Below, in pieces: positions 52,568 through 59,199 of a stretch of DNA of 64,000 bases. The DNA lies in NCBI GenBank assembly GCA_035499655.1, contig DATJYL010000064.1, positions 1-64,000 on the forward strand. The letters are read 5' to 3'. Within the stretch, counting starts at the first letter, position 1. Every line of letters starts with the position of its first letter. Below the pieces are notes generated by a model, which saw only the letters and a list, made by a program, of their open reading frames with translations, did not search any database and was not told where the DNA came from. The position numbers and the translations under genes were made by a program. This stretch comes from Pirellulales bacterium (GTDB lineage: Bacteria > Planctomycetota > Planctomycetia > Pirellulales > JADZDJ01).

Positions 52568-53755
52568 ATGGATTCTTTCAATAATCCGGCTTACTCTGGG
52601 CAAGCCGCCACGCCGCAGCAGGACCGGCGGGAACGCCCGCCCAATCGGTTGCCGTGGTTACTGTTGTTGCTATTGGGCGTGATTGTGTTGGCCTTTTTGC
52701 CCGTGCTGTTGGGGCAAATTGAATACGCCCGGACGAAAAAAGAAGTGCAGGCTTTACAGGAGTCGCTGCCGGAACTGAATTTGAAATCGCTGAGCAAGGC
52801 CTTTTCGCTGGTCTACCGCAAGGTGAAGCCCAGCGTGGTGCACATTGATACGCGGCGTGAACTACGCGCCGGACGGAATGGGTTTGCGCCCTTTTTTGGA
52901 GGTCGGCCGAATTCCCTCGAGGAAGAAGGAGAGGCGTCAGGCTGCGTCGTGGATGCGGACGGATACCTGCTCACGAACTTGCACGTCGTGGAAAACGCCA
53001 CGGAGATTACCGTCACGCTGGATGATGGACGGACGGTCACGGCGGAAGTGGTGGGAGTCGATCCGGCGCTGGATTTGGCGGTGCTGAAAATCGACGCATC
53101 GGGGTTAACTCCTATCACGTGGGGTGATAGCGACAAATTGGACGTGGGCGAAATGGTGTGGGCCATCGGCGATCCGTTTGGGTTGGATCAAACCATTACG
53201 GCGGGTATCGTCAGCGCCAAAAACCGGCGCGACTTGGGGAACAGCCCGCTGCAGGAATTTTTACAGACCGATGTGCCCATTAACCCGGGTTCCAGCGGCG
53301 GGCCGCTGGTGGATGTGAACGGCGATGTGGTGGGAATTAATTCGGCAATTTTCGGACGGACGTATCAGGGAATTAGCTTCGCCATTCCCAGCAACGTGGC
53401 CAAAGAGGTGTACGAAAAAATTCGGGCCAATGGCAAAGTGATCCGTGGATATTTGGGCGTGAGCCTGGCAACGATTACGCCCGAGCTGGCCGGGCAGTTG
53501 AAAGTGCCGGCCGAGCGAACCAATGGCGCGGTAATTATGGCCGTGACCGGCGGCTCGCCGGCGGAAAAAGCAGGACTGGAACCGGGCGATATTATCGTGG
53601 AATGGAACGGACGACCGGTGAACGAAGACCGGGAATTGCGGTTGTTAATTGCCCGCACGGAGATAGGAACTAAAGTGCCCGTGAAGTTATATCGCGATGG
53701 GAAAGAGATGATGTTGGATGTGGACGTGGTGGAGCGGCCGGCACAGTTGCAGTGA
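52568..53755 (+). CDS. Membrane-anchored HtrA/DegS-type serine protease
   Basis: A 395-residue S1C protease anchored by a single helix (about residues 29-52, PWLLLLLLGVIVLAFLPVLL) with no cleavage site, so the protease faces the periplasm. A coiled stretch follows. The triad is His in TNLHVVEN, Asp in ALDLAVLKID and Ser in NPGSSGGPL. One PDZ domain (about 300-390: GAVIMAVTGGSPAEKAGLEPGDII) closes the chain. It resembles DegS/HtrA regulators of envelope stress. It is convergent with the FtsK-like gene, from which a heptamer array separates it. Confidence 0.92.
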   Translation: MDSFNNPAYSGQAATPQQDRRERPPNRLPWLLLLLLGVIVLAFLPVLLGQIEYARTKKEVQALQESLPELNLKSLSKAFSLVYRKVKPSVVHIDTRRELRAGRNGFAPFFGGRPNSLEEEGEASGCVVDADGYLLTNLHVVENATEITVTLDDGRTVTAEVVGVDPALDLAVLKIDASGLTPITWGDSDKLDVGEMVWAIGDPFGLDQTITAGIVSAKNRRDLGNSPLQEFLQTDVPINPGSSGGPLVDVNGDVVGINSAIFGRTYQGISFAIPSNVAKEVYEKIRANGKVIRGYLGVSLATITPELAGQLKVPAERTNGAVIMAVTGGSPAEKAGLEPGDIIVEWNGRPVNEDRELRLLIARTEIGTKVPVKLYRDGKEMMLDVDVVERPAQLQ

Positions 53756-53761
53756 TGAAGT

Positions 53762-53849
53762 GCAGAGGGCAGAAGGTAGAAGACAGAAAGCAGAAGGCAG
53801 AAAGCAGAAGGCAGAAAGCAGAAAGCAGAGGGCAGAAGGCAGAAGGCAG
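53762..53849 (+). repeat. Heptamer tandem repeat GCAGAA[A/G] x12
   Basis: Twelve 7-bp units (GCAGAAA, GCAGAAG and close variants) plus four bases of a thirteenth. The array lies between the convergent ends of the htrA gene and the FtsK-like gene and is purine-only on the plus strand apart from C at unit position two. Confidence 0.9.
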
Positions 53850-53889
53850 TGAGCGATGGTCGCGGAGCCGAAAAAAAAGAGGTTCAACT

Positions 53890-56800
53890 CTATACGTTTT
53901 CGGCGGGGACGCGCAAGTTGAAGCGTTCCTGAACGATGGCCAGCCAATCGAGCGGGGGCCAAGCGTAGGGGCGGAATTTTTCCAGTCGGCCTTCTTCTTC
54001 GTTGTGGAACAGCGCCACGTTGGGCCCCAATTTGCTGGCCACGGGGGAATCGATGAGATGACTGCTGTCGTTGGCGCTCATTTGCAACAGCACGCGGAGG
54101 GCGAATTCGCGCAGAGCTTGGCGATCGAACGAGCGCTGCACGGCGGTGAACGAATCGCACCAAGCCAATGTATACACGCCGACGGCGGGCCCGTCGCGCA
54201 GAATGTTGCCCAGCAGTTGGGCGGGGGATGGTGCTTTTTCGCCGCCGCGGAAGGAATAGCCCAGGTCGCTTTCGTCTTTTCTCAAATCGCGGAAGCGGCC
54301 GAGATCGGAAATGAATAGGTAAATGGCCGCAGCCTGGCGGTCATCGGCCCCTTGCCGCCGATCCACTTCCTGAGCGATTTCGGCCAAAGTTGCGGGCAAT
54401 TCGCGCCGGCTGGCGGATTGCAGCGGGTGGGGCAACACGGTGGAAAACGCCGCCAAACCACCGCGGTAGTCAGCCAAGGGTAGATCGATGGGCAAATCGG
54501 CCGGGCGATCGTGCTCCAAAATGTAGAACCGCGCAGGGCTGCCGGCGGCCAAGCTGGCTGCCGCTCCCCCTTGCGAACGGGGCCGATGTTGGGCCGCCAG
54601 GCTTATCAGGGCGGAAGCCAGCAAGCCGATTGCAGGCTCGGCTCGCTGGCCGACAATGAGCATGTTGTCGCCGCTTTGCGGACGGAACACCGCGGCGGTG
54701 GGATCTTTGATGGCGATGGCTTCGCCCAGCCAGGCATGCACGGGGGTCGATTGCACGGGCCAATCGGCGGCGCGAAGCAGGTCGCTTAAACCGCGATTGT
54801 TGCGGATATCGGCGGGGAGATTGCCTTCGAACACAATCGGCGCGGGCTGGGGTTTAAGGGTTTGTTCCGCCACGCGCTGCTGGGTAAGTTGTTGCAAACC
54901 GTGCAAGTAAATTTCGCGTCGCTCCTCGCCCAGCCAGACAATTTGAAACGGATGGTTGCCCTGGACGGTGCCGTTGGAATCGTTGTAAATGGCTTCGCCG
55001 GGGCGCGACAACAAGCGGGCGGCGGAGTTTTCTTCGCTCAAAATCAGATGGGCGTCGGCCTCGCTGCACTGCAGCGCGATGCGGACGGCCATTTGCCCCA
55101 ACGTGCTGCGGGCCAGGCTGTAGGCACCGCCGAGAGTTTGTGAACCCAAGAGGACGTGCATGCCGAAGGCACGGCCTTGGCGAACGAGTCGATCCAAAAG
55201 CAGGGCGGCGTCCTGGGCGAGTTTATCGTCGTCAGTGAAGAGTTCTTGAAATTCGTCGACGATGAGCATGATGCGGGGCATCGAATTCGCGCCGGCGGCC
55301 GCGCGGTAGCCGGCGATATCTTGCGCGCCGACTTTACGGTACAAATCGCCGCGGCGTTTCAACTCGGCATCGAGCCGTTCGATGACGCTGAGGCCGAATT
55401 CCCGTTCGCTTTCGATGGCGATGACTCTGGCATGCGGCAAATGATGCGTGGCATAGGTTTTGAATTCGACCCCTTTTTTGAAATCGATGAGGTACAGTTC
55501 GATTTGCTCCGGGCTGTATGTCAGGGCGAGATTCGTGACCAGCGCGTGGAGGAAGGTAGATTTTCCGGATCCGGTTTTTCCTGCAATGAGTGCATGCTGC
55601 GAAGTGCCTTCGCCCAGTTGCAAGTATTGGAGCTTGGTGGCGCCGGCGCGGCCCAGCGGCACGCGGATATTTCCGGCGGTATCGCCGGTCCACCATTTAT
55701 CGCGCGACGGAGCGACGTAATCGAAGGGCACTTCCACGCGCTTGGCGGCCTTTGCGCCACGACCGACGATTTGCACCAGCGGCGTGAATTGCTCTTCCGG
55801 CGGCGGCGATTCCAAACGGAGCGGATATTTTTCGAAATCGGCATCCTGCCATACGAATTGCTTGCCGTTCCAATTGAGCGTAAGCGTGTGACGCTCCACG
55901 TCTTTCATTTCGAAGGCGGGCGGGAGCGGCAGCTTGACATCGTTCACCACTAGCACGTATACGCCGCAGCGAGCGCCGCTGCTGGCAATGCTGGTGAGGC
56001 GACGGGCCGCGGTTTCGGTAAAGTTGACCGGGAAATTGGCGACTACCAATACACGGAAGGGCTCGGCCACTTCGCCGGCAAAGACGTTGTATTCGTCGAT
56101 CGAGTGGAATTCGTTTCGCAAATACTTTTGGATGACATTTTCCATTTGCTCAGTCAAATCGGAAAGCCGGGCTTCAATGTGCGCCGGCTCCGTCCAAATG
56201 CGATTGGTGACCAGCAGTTCGTCGTGGTCGGCCAGGTGCATGAAGCCGGCAAAGTTTTCGCCCAGGCCCACGGGATCGATAATGGTAAAGCGCACCTTGC
56301 CCGGCGGAATGGAGGTGAGCATTCGCAGCATCATGTCCTGGACGGCTTCGATGGCGATGTGGCGGCCCTCGCCGGCGGCCTTGAACAACAGCGAGGCATT
56401 TTGCGGAAAGGGCAGCAGCGCAGGAAGATCGAACTGCGTGGGAATGAGCCCATTGAGCTGCGCGTCGGTGGAGATAGCGCCGGGGATGGCGTGCAAATCG
56501 ACGTGATATAGTCCGAAGGGCAAGGTGGGTGGGGCAGCAGTGGGAGGTTGCCAGGTATTCCAGCGGGGATCGTTCCAGGCGGGAAAGAAGTGCTGATGTT
56601 GCCGCACGTTTTCTTCGATGATGGCGCGGACCTTAGCCATGCCGGAGCGCCATGTTTCGGCCAGGTTGTTCCAGGCCTGATCGCGCCGCCCGCGGTTGGC
56701 CAGCGTGGCGGCGGCTGCGTGTTCTTGGGCGGAGCGAAGATCGGACTGGTAGCGCTGCTGGATTTCGTCCAGCCGGTGGGGATAAAAAGCGTGGGCCTCG

Positions 56801-57912
56801 GCCAGGGCGGAATCGCGGGTTTGTAAGAGCTCCGCTTCCGTGTGTTTGTGCTTTTCGTGAGCGGCCTGCAGAGCGGAATCGTGGCGGGCAGTGACCTCGG
56901 TGATGCTGGTTTCGAATTTTTCGCGAGAGGCTTTCAGCTCGTTGTCGCGGCGCTCGACAATTTTTCGGGATTCCTCTTTGCAGCGAGTTTTGGCTTGTTC
57001 CAACGCAGCGAAGCGGAGCCCTTCGGATTGATGCAGCATGGTGTGAAACAGCTCGTACGGTTCTACTGCGGTAGCCTTGGCTTGGCGATACAGCCAAACG
57101 AGGAGCGTTACCGAAGCTGCCGCGCCGACGGATGCACCCACAATGAGCCACGTCCAGCTTGTCCAGTTGCGGGTACCGAAAATCAGGTAACCCAAACCAC
57201 ATCCCAGGGCCAGCAGCAGAAATACGAATCCAGCCGGCCGCTTGCCAATTAGTAATTTGGGCCAGCGGAGTTGGCGGAACGCTTCTAAGTGTTTGACGGC
57301 GGCCACAGCCAGGTCGCCGAGCTGCACAGCGGCATTTTCGGGAGGAGTTTCTTCCGTGCGCCATGTTTGAGCCGGATCCGAGGCGGCAGTTTCGGCCTGC
57401 ATGGTTGGAGCCCGCCGCAGGCGTCCCAAGCGGCAGACGGCGAGATACCGATTCGCCACTTCGACCGCCTGCCGCAACACATCGTGCCGGGCCAGAATCT
57501 CTTGGTGGTCTTGATCGAATTGCAATTTGGGAGCGGTGTGCGTGGCTTCGTATACGGTGTTGGTTTCCCAGTTTTCCTCGGTCAGCCTTTTCTTGGCCTT
57601 GTTTTGGGATTTGGTGAACTCGGACTCGATGTGTTTGAGGGATGACTGCAACTCGCCGGCGGCGATGTCGTGGCGGGTTTCGTAGGCGGCTTGGGCTCCG
57701 GCCAGAGCGGAATCGAATTCGCGCTGCGTGTTGTCGCGGTCCATTTGGAACCGCATGATGGCGGATTGGCGGGCGTCGCTTAGCTCGCGTTGAATGCGGG
57801 CCGTGACGGTTTCGAACTCGGCGCGCATGTGCCGCTCCGCCTGTTCGCGTTCGGCGGAGAACCGATACAGCTCGGCCAGCATTTCACGTTGAGCGGCGGT
57901 GGAAAAAGACAT
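53890..57912 (-). CDS. EssC/EccC-like FtsK/SpoIIIE ATPase with coiled-coil and membrane segments
   Basis: A 1340-residue protein. Residues 1-160 form coiled coil, about 226-246 and 253-275 are two membrane helices, and 285-435 is again coiled coil. Three ATPase-like modules follow. The first (about 485-720) has lost its P-loop (KAAGEGRH at 511-518). The second (about 735-1010) is a full FtsK/SpoIIIE domain with Walker A GKTGSGKS at 778-785, YLIDFKKGVEF, and Walker B IMLIVDEFQE with D886/E887. The third (about 1040-1340) is degenerate (GQRAEP at 1088-1093). This three-module, two-helix plan is that of EccC/EssC motors of type VII secretion, but FHA domains are lacking. It is the last gene of a minus-strand operon with three small WXG100-like proteins. 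DNA translocation is an alternative role, though no gamma domain is seen. Confidence 0.8.
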   Translation of the reverse strand: MSFSTAAQREMLAELYRFSAEREQAERHMRAEFETVTARIQRELSDARQSAIMRFQMDRDNTQREFDSALAGAQAAYETRHDIAAGELQSSLKHIESEFTKSQNKAKKRLTEENWETNTVYEATHTAPKLQFDQDHQEILARHDVLRQAVEVANRYLAVCRLGRLRRAPTMQAETAASDPAQTWRTEETPPENAAVQLGDLAVAAVKHLEAFRQLRWPKLLIGKRPAGFVFLLLALGCGLGYLIFGTRNWTSWTWLIVGASVGAAASVTLLVWLYRQAKATAVEPYELFHTMLHQSEGLRFAALEQAKTRCKEESRKIVERRDNELKASREKFETSITEVTARHDSALQAAHEKHKHTEAELLQTRDSALAEAHAFYPHRLDEIQQRYQSDLRSAQEHAAAATLANRGRRDQAWNNLAETWRSGMAKVRAIIEENVRQHQHFFPAWNDPRWNTWQPPTAAPPTLPFGLYHVDLHAIPGAISTDAQLNGLIPTQFDLPALLPFPQNASLLFKAAGEGRHIAIEAVQDMMLRMLTSIPPGKVRFTIIDPVGLGENFAGFMHLADHDELLVTNRIWTEPAHIEARLSDLTEQMENVIQKYLRNEFHSIDEYNVFAGEVAEPFRVLVVANFPVNFTETAARRLTSIASSGARCGVYVLVVNDVKLPLPPAFEMKDVERHTLTLNWNGKQFVWQDADFEKYPLRLESPPPEEQFTPLVQIVGRGAKAAKRVEVPFDYVAPSRDKWWTGDTAGNIRVPLGRAGATKLQYLQLGEGTSQHALIAGKTGSGKSTFLHALVTNLALTYSPEQIELYLIDFKKGVEFKTYATHHLPHARVIAIESEREFGLSVIERLDAELKRRGDLYRKVGAQDIAGYRAAAGANSMPRIMLIVDEFQELFTDDDKLAQDAALLLDRLVRQGRAFGMHVLLGSQTLGGAYSLARSTLGQMAVRIALQCSEADAHLILSEENSAARLLSRPGEAIYNDSNGTVQGNHPFQIVWLGEERREIYLHGLQQLTQQRVAEQTLKPQPAPIVFEGNLPADIRNNRGLSDLLRAADWPVQSTPVHAWLGEAIAIKDPTAAVFRPQSGDNMLIVGQRAEPAIGLLASALISLAAQHRPRSQGGAAASLAAGSPARFYILEHDRPADLPIDLPLADYRGGLAAFSTVLPHPLQSASRRELPATLAEIAQEVDRRQGADDRQAAAIYLFISDLGRFRDLRKDESDLGYSFRGGEKAPSPAQLLGNILRDGPAVGVYTLAWCDSFTAVQRSFDRQALREFALRVLLQMSANDSSHLIDSPVASKLGPNVALFHNEEEGRLEKFRPYAWPPLDWLAIVQERFNLRVPAENV

Positions 57913-57990: not shown

Positions 57991-58212
57991 CTATTCGCAT
58001 TCACGTTCGGCGCGGCCCAGCACTTCGGCCAGGGCGGCGATGGCGTCCAAGGCGGCCGATAATTGCGGTTCCAGCGGATCGAGATAGTTTTCCTCGAAGC
58101 GGAGCCGGTTGTCGTCGTGCCAGTGTTCTTTGGTCGACTCCCACTGCAGGCGCAAGGTTTTGTAGGCGGAGGCAATTTTCGCGGAGCCGCTCGTTAAATC
58201 GGCAATTTTCAT
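57991..58212 (-). CDS. Short WXG100-like helical protein
   Basis: A 73-residue, highly charged helical protein. The central HWHDDNRLRF places Trp, Asp at +2 and Phe at +8, the spacing of the WXG100 turn, and it is nearly superimposable on TWRDQEHERF of the 90-residue protein upstream in the operon. Helices precede (AKIASAYKTLRLQWEST) and follow (LEPQLSAALDAIAALAEVLG). Its ATG overlaps the stop of the 222-residue gene (ATGA). It may pair with another small protein of the operon as a substrate or assembly factor. Confidence 0.7.
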   Translation of the reverse strand: MKIADLTSGSAKIASAYKTLRLQWESTKEHWHDDNRLRFEENYLDPLEPQLSAALDAIAALAEVLGRAERECE

Positions 58213-58877
58213 GGGAGGCTGGACTCCGCGGCGCGGGGGTTAACGCTGCCGGCTGGCTGGGGCGATGAGCTGTTTTGAGGTGTAGATTGATCCGCATTTT
58301 TTTCGGCCGGCGAGGCGGCAAGCTCGTCGGTTGGCCGAGCCATCGACTGGCCAGGCTTGTTGGCGGCGAGCTCTTCCCAGGTGATGGCCGCGGGAGTTCT
58401 GCCCGAGGTGTACTGTTCCAAGGCCATGCTCATCCGCTCCAAAAGGACCATAGCGTGTGGAATATCGCCGTCGAGCAGGCCCATGAGTTGTTGCACGGGT
58501 CCTTGAAATTCGTCGACGGCGCGGCGGGCGGCCATGGTCCAGCGCCGCACGGTCTGAAGCTTCTCTTCGGCGTGTTCCAGGCGATGCTTGGCCATTTCGA
58601 CCGCTTTTTTTTCGTCGTCGCAGGAGGGAATGTAATCGCCAATTTGCTTGTAAGTGCGGGCGTGGGCCAATTCGTCTTTGGCACGAGCCACGGCATCATA
58701 ACCGCGGCGGACTTCCGCTTGCCAATGGCCGGGTTGCTCCACGGTAATCCAATCCATGGCGCGGCGGACTTCCAATTGGATGTCGGTCAGCGCGCGGCGG
58801 ACGGCGCCGGCAAAATCGACCAGGTCGGCGCGAAATTCGCCAATGGCGGCAACCTCGGTGACGCGGGCTTCAGACAT
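58209..58877 (-). CDS. Helical protein with WXG100-like turn and disordered tail
   Basis: A 222-residue soluble protein. The first 150 residues are long amphipathic helices with coiled-coil character. GHWQAEVRRGYD places a Trp, Ala at +2 and Tyr at +8, like the WXG100 turn, between two helices (VRRALTDIQLEVRRAMDW and AVARAKDELAHAR). The last 60 residues are rich in Ser, Pro, Gln and Asn and probably disordered. No signal peptide is present. It could be a longer WXG/LXG-type secreted partner or a cytoplasmic adaptor. It lies second in the operon, 49 bp after the WXG100-like gene. Confidence 0.65.
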   Translation of the reverse strand: MSEARVTEVAAIGEFRADLVDFAGAVRRALTDIQLEVRRAMDWITVEQPGHWQAEVRRGYDAVARAKDELAHARTYKQIGDYIPSCDDEKKAVEMAKHRLEHAEEKLQTVRRWTMAARRAVDEFQGPVQQLMGLLDGDIPHAMVLLERMSMALEQYTSGRTPAAITWEELAANKPGQSMARPTDELAASPAEKNADQSTPQNSSSPQPAGSVNPRAAESSLP

Positions 58878-58926
58878 GAATGGCCCTGCTCAGAAGTGAT
58901 AGAAATCGGAAAGGATCGGTACTTTT

Positions 58927-59199
58927 TTAGCGCTGCTGCAAATACTCTTCAATTCGCTCCGCCTTTCGCAGCAAGAACGGAACGTACTGATTGGTGATGT
59001 CAACGAACCGTGATAAGGTGCGCAGTTGTTGCTCGAATTCTTCGAGGAAGCGTTCGTGCTCTTGGTCGCGCCAGGTGGAGCCGAGGGTGGTCAATTGCCG
59101 TTGGGCGTTTTGCATTTGCTCCAGCATTTCGTCGTTGAATTGCTTGAGATGTTGCACAAAGCGGCGCAATTCAGCCGGATCGACAATGGCCTGCGGCAT
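58927..59199 (-). CDS. WXG100-like protein
   Basis: A 90-residue protein from the ATG at 59199 (MPQAIVDPAELRRFVQHL), behind GAGGAA; the longer frame is rejected. It is a helical hairpin: helix 1 (DPAELRRFVQHLKQFNDEMLEQM), a turn TWRDQEHERF with Trp and Phe at +8 as in ESAT-6-type proteins but Asp in place of Gly, and helix 2 (LEEFEQQLRTLSRFVDIT) ending in a charged tail. Size and plan match WXG100 substrates of type VII secretion. It is the first gene of the operon that ends with the EssC-like ATPase. Confidence 0.78.
   Translation of the reverse strand: MPQAIVDPAELRRFVQHLKQFNDEMLEQMQNAQRQLTTLGSTWRDQEHERFLEEFEQQLRTLSRFVDITNQYVPFLLRKAERIEEYLQQR

What the first reader, a model, noticed from the sequence alone, without database searches (positions are those of the whole stretch)
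57991..59199. Three neighbouring small proteins share a W-x-[D/A]-x5-[F/Y] turn
WRDQEHERF, WHDDNRLRF and WQAEVRRGY occur in three consecutive genes, each between two predicted helices, with the aromatic at +8 exactly as in WXG100 proteins (W-x-G-x5-F). Gly is replaced by Asp or Ala. This suggests duplicated family members that may form heterodimers, and a lineage-specific version of the motif that standard profiles could miss.
Basis: seen in the sequence. Interest (0 to 1): 0.7.

Follow-up and report, generated by a model that had tools for sequence, protein, structure and literature searches.

The report
Minimal planctomycete type VII secretion module
Two of the three small proteins are hairpin relatives of the WXG100 proteins that type VII secretion systems export, the third is a long helical rod, and together with the neighbouring ATPase they form a four-gene set that related planctomycete bacteria almost always keep or lose as a whole.

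Summary
The three motifs are present, but only two are the same thing. In 90 loci recruited by the downstream ATPase D, A (90 aa) keeps W, D(+2), F(+8) in 71 of 71 and C (73 aa) keeps W and D in 79 of 79. In B (222 aa) W is kept (77 of 79), but +2 and +8 vary freely, and W52 lies inside a 71-residue helix. A passes Pfam WXG100; C escapes it but has the fold (HP0062, Z 9.1). A, B, C and D form a unit: of 148 genomes 104 have all four, 40 none, 4 a part, even where genes are scattered; 20 genomes have two B and two C but one A. Plasmid relatives elsewhere carry effector-like proteins in B's place; B's profile matches two of them. Best reading: a membrane-anchored minimal type VII-like export module, with A and C as Esx-like partners and B as a stand-alone effector-trafficking domain. 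Similar modules are published for CoCoNuT loci (PMC11090510), and planctomycete WXG plus ATPase was noted in 2012 (PMC3482391). New here: the toxin-less, membrane-anchored version and its co-inheritance. Secretion is untested.

The parts
58927..59199 (-). Gene A, 90 aa WXG100-type helical hairpin; WRDQEHERF at 59047-59073
   Evidence: PF06013 29.9 bits, cut-off 27.3; W/R/D/E/F invariant in 71 of 71; PDB relatives HP0062 3fx7 (E 3.4e-11) and B. anthracis EsxB
58209..58877 (-). Gene B, 222 aa: two helices of about 71 residues (9-79, 87-157) and a disordered A/P/S-rich tail; WQAEVRRGY at 58698-58724 lies inside helix 1 and is not a WXG turn
   Evidence: AlphaFold on 53 sequences, helices mostly pLDDT above 90; motif not conserved; profile matches N-terminal domains of effector-slot proteins in Rhodococcus and Caballeronia
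57991..58212 (-). Gene C, 73 aa truncated WXG100-fold hairpin; WHDDNRLRF at 58096-58122; start overlaps the stop of B by 4 bases
   Evidence: AlphaFold pLDDT 94.9; HP0062 Z 9.1, rmsd 1.2 over 71 residues, best of 165 chains aligned; W and D 79 of 79
53890..57912 (-). [quoted passage not shown]
   Evidence: PF01580 120.7 bits; TIGR03924 130.6 bits, below its cut-off 509; alignment of 89 homologues; TM count; coiled coil and domain borders judged by eye

Best explanation
Genes A-B-C-D encode a minimal type VII-like export module of the planctomycete inner membrane. D is a membrane-anchored EccC/EssC-type ATPase with one active motor domain. A and C are Esx/WXG100-fold hairpins with a W-x-D turn that act as two targeting partners. 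B is a stand-alone version of the long helical domain that carries effectors in related systems; A and C would pack against it, and the complex would be recognised and pumped by D. Shown by computation: the folds of B and C, the kinship of A and C, invariance of the turn, co-inheritance of the four genes, and B's match to two effector-slot N-termini. Inferred: complex formation, secretion, the cargo role of B, and what the exported complex does.
For: Co-occurrence in 148 genomes: ABCD 104, none 40, CD 3, BCD 1. It persists where genes are scattered: in 15 of 104, A-B or B-C do not lie within 5 kb on one contig, including the single-contig genomes G002, G021, G136, G142. Order A-B-C-D in 52 of 80 named loci, plus 4 that differ only through ORF-start or splitting effects. 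A is WXG100 by Pfam and by PDB match; C by fold. D: only the central FtsK domain keeps Walker motifs in 89 homologues; at least two TM-like segments in 53 of 62. B profile against the Rhodococcus 314 aa protein P 1.7e-5 and the Caballeronia 436 aa protein P 2.6e-4, each with 0 of 60 heptad-block shuffles reaching the score, while coiled coils of D score as noise. In the Helicobacter plasmid the B slot holds a WHH nuclease followed by an SMI1/KNR4 protein.
Against: No secretion data. YukD found in 1 of 40 relatives, YukC in 0 of 40; the EccB search is uninformative because no control rang. No Y-x3-[DE] export signal near the C-terminus of A (0 of 71) or B (0 of 79), 1 of 79 for C. B does not match the Helicobacter effector (7 of 60 shuffles reach its score). 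The 76-77 aa proteins of the Caballeronia and Helicobacter loci do not match C significantly. No outer-membrane route is known.
Confidence: 0.6

Rival explanations
1. The module does not export protein: A, B and C are structural or regulatory subunits of a membrane FtsK-like motor acting on DNA or on cell-envelope organisation, tied to planctomycete biology.
For: B has no toxin or enzyme domain, its tail is disordered, and no immunity gene or other neighbour is shared by all loci. Retained by 108 of 148 genomes in whole or part, more like a housekeeping than a weapon system. Accessory T7SS parts not found.
Against: A belongs to a family whose tested members are mostly T7SS substrates (established knowledge); D is nearest to EccC (130.6 bits) and EssC (102.5), far above DNA translocase FtsK (32.8); relatives carry nuclease-type cargo in B's slot.
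Confidence: 0.25
2. An interbacterial weapon whose effectors are encoded elsewhere and recruited through B.
For: Helicobacter and Caballeronia relatives carry nuclease or nuclease-like domains in the B slot; effector export with dedicated helical partners is known for T7SSb (PMC9600955, passages).
Against: Only one or two B copies per genome, no toxin-like tail among the 79 B proteins examined; exactly one A per positive genome.
Confidence: 0.12
3. The motif is a coincidence in three coiled-coil proteins.
For: True for B: +2 and +8 vary freely.
Against: W and D are invariant in A (71) and C (79), which match each other in register.
Confidence: 0.03

Closest known systems
CoCoNuT-associated WXG100/EssC-like module (PMC11090510, passages read)
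   Same: EssC-like ATPase with three domains of which only the central one is predicted active, N-terminal coiled coil, two WXG100-fold proteins of which one lacks the motif, and a coiled-coil protein in one operon
   Different: There the ATPase lacks TM helices, the coiled-coil protein is fused to a D-ExK nuclease and the module sits in TerY-P/CoCoNuT loci. Here D has two TM-like segments, B has no nuclease, and the loci examined hold only A-D in common
Solo-WXG plus YueA-like ATPase of planctomycetes and others (PMC3482391, Table 1 note 6, passage read)
   Same: A and D fit this description, including a single active middle domain
   Different: That note names neither C nor B and calls the systems mobile; here co-inheritance across a class is shown
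Helicobacter pylori HP0062/HP0066 (PMC3397514, PMC4978471, passages read)
   Same: WRD bend, hairpin fold, FtsK/SpoIIIE gene in the cluster
   Different: HP0062 was solved as a homodimer; its cluster includes an HNH/Endo VII nuclease
T7SSb LXG effector with Lap1 and Lap2 (PMC9600955, passages read)
   Same: Long helical domain plus two small WXG100-like hairpins as a likely pre-secretion complex
   Different: No FxxxD or YxxxD/E signal recognised here (only YxxxD/E was scanned), no toxin domain on B; an LXG motif was not looked for by profile

Membership tests
WXG100 (PF06013): protein A | Profile match over the curated cut-off | tested here: met
   29.9 bits against 27.3 for the window protein
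WXG100: protein A | Literal W-x-G in the bend | tested here: not met
   W-x-D in 71 of 71; HP0062 also has WRD
WXG100: protein C | Profile match over the curated cut-off | tested here: not met
   No hit for the window protein; 10 of 53 members at E 0.1, best 4.8e-4. Called WXG100-fold, not filed as a Pfam member
WXG100: protein C | Helix-turn-helix fold with W in the turn | tested here: met
   (HP0062 Z 9.1, rmsd 1.2, 71 residues)
WXG100: protein B | Conserved W and aromatic at +8 in the turn between helices | tested here: not met
WXG100 dimers | Homo- or heterodimer of A and C | not testable with these tools
   No complex prediction available
Type VII secretion system (T7SSa/T7SSb) | EccC/EssC ATPase at the curated equivalog cut-off | tested here: not met
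   TIGR03924 130.6 of 509; TIGR03928 102.5 of 778
Type VII secretion system (T7SSb) | YukD and YukC/EssB components | tested here: not met
   1 of 40 and 0 of 40 relatives; B. subtilis control rang in both
Type VII secretion system (T7SSa) | EccB | tested here: inconclusive
   0 of 40 relatives, but no control rang
Type VII secretion system | Secretion of the WXG100 protein | not testable with these tools
   Needs an experiment
CoCoNuT-type WXG100/EssC-like module | Three ATPase domains, only the central one with Walker motifs | tested here: met
   Alignment of 89 D homologues
CoCoNuT-type WXG100/EssC-like module | ATPase without transmembrane helices | tested here: not met
   At least two TM-like segments in 53 of 62 homologues; none in the first 400 residues of the Caballeronia D
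CoCoNuT-type WXG100/EssC-like module | Coiled coil fused to a nuclease | tested here: not met
   B tails are 1-138 aa, A/P/S/E-rich; B has no Pfam hit above cut-off

The most novel reading that the evidence does not exclude
Planctomycetes have turned a mobile toxin-delivery cassette into a resident, toxin-less, membrane-anchored type VII machine of a diderm bacterium, whose cargo is the long rod B with its disordered tail; in one family a single A protein serves two distinct B-C-D machines.
Probability: 0.3. Interest if true: 0.75.

Novelty: new variant of a known kind. Interest (0 to 1): 0.5.

Why it matters
Type VII secretion is studied in Bacillota and Actinomycetota. A four-gene version, with one active motor domain and no recognised accessory part, present in 104 of 148 sampled genomes of one class of diderm bacteria, would give a small testable model of what the ATPase and Esx-like partners do on their own. 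Its toxin-less B also raises the question of what such systems do outside warfare.

Tried and rejected
Three-way duplication of one family: rejected, B fails by conservation, fold and profile comparison (A-B hhalign probability 2.3, C-B 0.5). My first iterative profiles for A and C merged and hit each other; I rebuilt them from position-defined sets.

B against solved structures by sequence: only weak hits to MHC and coiled coils; by fold: long-helix proteins at Z about 10-11 (HlyD, VIPP1, YscO), which the tool's note treats as a common arrangement. LXG, PPE and EspB do not appear in that list; this does not exclude them.

Conserved partners beyond A-D: the best shared neighbours are in 18 and 17 of 81 loci (80 named loci and the window) upstream, an HtrA-type protease in 13 and a further downstream cluster in 14; read as local synteny. 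Virus or phage copies of A: viral contigs, 42 pattern matches, none confirmed; phages, no match. Poulsen's C-terminal pattern: in 24 of 71 A, 13 of 79 B, 50 of 79 C, not diagnostic. Direct repeats in the region: only short two-copy families.

Literature: searches returned no paper that I recognised as describing the planctomycete A-B-C-D set; the library is open-access only. [quoted passage not shown]

Rows dropped: of 90 D loci, 19 lack an assigned A and 11 lack B and C. They are contig-end or short-flank loci, second cassettes, or loci with no A-C beside D (two of the latter, G136 and G146, carry scattered or split genes; the others were not traced individually). L003 and L091 are the same locus. 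D presence was read by me with a limit of E 1e-40; among G000-G147 the weakest positive is 1.1e-41 and the strongest negative 7.1e-18.

Full report
What is there. On the minus strand lie A (58927-59199, 90 aa), B (58209-58877, 222 aa), C (57991-58212, 73 aa) and D (53890-57912, 1340 aa). The stop of B and start of C share ATGA. The motifs are real in all three small proteins.

Is the motif shared? I fetched loci around D homologues in genomes of the same class: 90 loci, L002 being the window. A was assigned in 71, B in 79, C in 79, all three in 71. In A, W, R(+1), D(+2), E(+4) and F(+8) are each 71 of 71. In C, W and D are 79 of 79 and +8 is F 68, H 7, Y 2, L 2. In B, W is 77 of 79 but +2 holds 16 residue types and +8 is F, Y or W in 8 of 79. 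In 80 named GTDB loci the picture is the same: C W and D 73 of 73, F 66 of 73; B +8 aromatic in 6 of 76. A there is 80 of 80, but one recruitment pattern contained WRD, so only the D-recruited set is unbiased for A.

Folds and kinship. AlphaFold with 53 aligned sequences gives C two helices, 3-28 and 34-72, with W31-x-D33 in the turn (pLDDT 94.9); its best solved match is H. pylori HP0062 (Z 9.1, rmsd 1.2, 71 residues), with EsxA, EsxB and related WXG100 entries among the next rows. B is one long hairpin (9-79, 87-157) with W52 inside helix 1, then a tail of low confidence. A and C match in register (P 6.7e-5, probability 64%). The C profile scores the Caballeronia A protein at 25 bits (E 5.5e-6 among about 7,800 ORFs); the best ORF unrelated to A scores 9.9. 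A against B and C against B give probabilities 2.3 and 0.5.

D. Pfam FtsK_SpoIIIE 120.7 bits; EccCa 130.6 and EssC 102.5 bits, both far below equivalog cut-offs. In 89 homologues the central domain keeps AGKTGSGKST and vDEFQE, while the flanking domains show no conserved GK[ST]. At least two TM-like segments precede the first FtsK-like domain in 53 of 62 homologues where a landmark was found; the plasmid-borne Caballeronia D has none in its first 400 residues.

A functional unit. Scanning the same 148 genomes for A, B and C and reading D gives 104 ABCD, 40 none, 3 with C and D only, 1 with B, C and D. The four partial genomes are draft assemblies of 320-1430 contigs. Presence and absence are mixed within at least four families (f2, f9, f17, f18), so the pattern is not one clade split, although the 148 genomes are not independent. 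In 15 of 104 genomes A-B or B-C are not within 5 kb on one contig, yet all are kept; in the single-contig genomes G021, G136 and G142 A, B and C lie far apart. A is single in all 104; B and C are double in the same 20 genomes, and only one of the two B copies has A nearby. A search of the phylum found A in 53 of 294 genomes, and named loci include Phycisphaerales.

Relatives elsewhere. On plasmids, tblastn with A found Caballeronia sp. SBC2 and Helicobacter sp. NHP19-012; with D also two Rhodococcus and one Deinococcus. Caballeronia: A-like, 436 aa, 113 aa, 76 aa, ATPase. Helicobacter: A-like, 340 aa, 140 aa, 77 aa, ATPase. Rhodococcus AH-ZY2: ATPase, 314 aa, 73 aa, 87 aa A-like. The A-like proteins read WQD, WGD and WKD with F at +8, and the Rhodococcus 73 aa protein contains WRD. 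The 340 aa protein ends in a WHH nuclease (44.6 bits, cut-off 25.1) and is followed by an SMI1/KNR4 protein (29.1, cut-off 25.4). The 436 aa protein ends in a stretch with FEVKCG that I read as nuclease-like by eye; Pfam has no hit. The B profile matches the N-terminus of the 314 aa protein (score 38.1, P 1.7e-5) and of the 436 aa protein (32.6, P 2.6e-4), with 0 of 60 heptad-block shuffles reaching either; the 340 aa protein is not matched (18.4; 7 of 60 reach it); coiled coils of D score 12-14. So B looks like the trafficking half of an effector without the effector.

How it may work (inference). By analogy with LXG-Lap1-Lap2 and PE-PPE pairs (PMC9600955, passages), A and C would bundle with B and present a composite signal to D. 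No Y-x3-[DE] arm was found near the C-termini (A 0 of 71, B 0 of 79, C 1 of 79), so recognition would differ. YukD and YukC are absent from nearly all relatives searched; EccB could not be judged.

What is known. PMC3482391 (Table 1 note 6) states that planctomycetes and other lineages have solo WXG domains with a YueA-like ATPase whose middle domain alone is active. PMC11090510 describes, in Type III-A CoCoNuT loci, an EssC-like ATPase of that kind with two WXG100-fold proteins, a coiled-coil nuclease fusion and no TM helices. PMC3397514 notes WRD in HP0062 and its FtsK neighbour; PMC4978471 speaks of a WXG100 secretion system in H. pylori and lists an HNH/Endo VII nuclease with the FtsK gene. 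All four were read as passages. The general kind is therefore known. The planctomycete variant differs by TM-anchored D, toxin-less B, co-inheritance across a class and one A beside two cassettes. I found no paper on that variant in the searches named under Tried and rejected.

Verdict. The larger result is a conserved four-gene type VII-like module. Export is likely but unproven.

Noticed in passing
L223:9001-13403: Helicobacter sp. NHP19-012 plasmid: A-like WXG protein, helical protein ending in a WHH nuclease, SMI1/KNR4 immunity-like gene, 77 aa protein, FtsK ATPase: a toxin-immunity pair inside a minimal type VII-like locus of a diderm bacterium.
   Followed up: partly
L222:8267-18264: Caballeronia sp. 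SBC2 plasmid: the same module lies beside VWA, CARF, PP2C and kinase genes, matching the published CoCoNuT/TerY-P context.
   Followed up: partly
Genomes of family f16, e.g. G135 (L008/L149 and L049): 20 of 148 genomes carry two B and two C genes but only one A; one search lists two full-length D matches in several of them. Why one A suffices is unexplained.
   Followed up: partly
L145, L169, L173, L178: Named-genome loci with A (L169 also B, L173 and L178 also B and C) but no D ORF detected in the 9 kb downstream; not checked whether D lies elsewhere.
   Followed up: no
C C-terminus (about 57994-58000) and B loop residues 80-86: C has a near-terminal Cys in 63 of 79 homologues, and the loop of B's hairpin has Cys in 31 of 79; a Cys followed by E at +3 also appears in the Rhodococcus and Caballeronia effector-slot proteins.
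   Followed up: no
window 53752-53900: Repetitive QKAESR-type reading between D and the HtrA-type protease gene, perhaps a dispersed intergenic repeat.
   Followed up: no
L192 (G236:C1:1770757-1770966): The one relative of 40 with a YukD-family match over the cut-off; its context was not examined.
   Followed up: no
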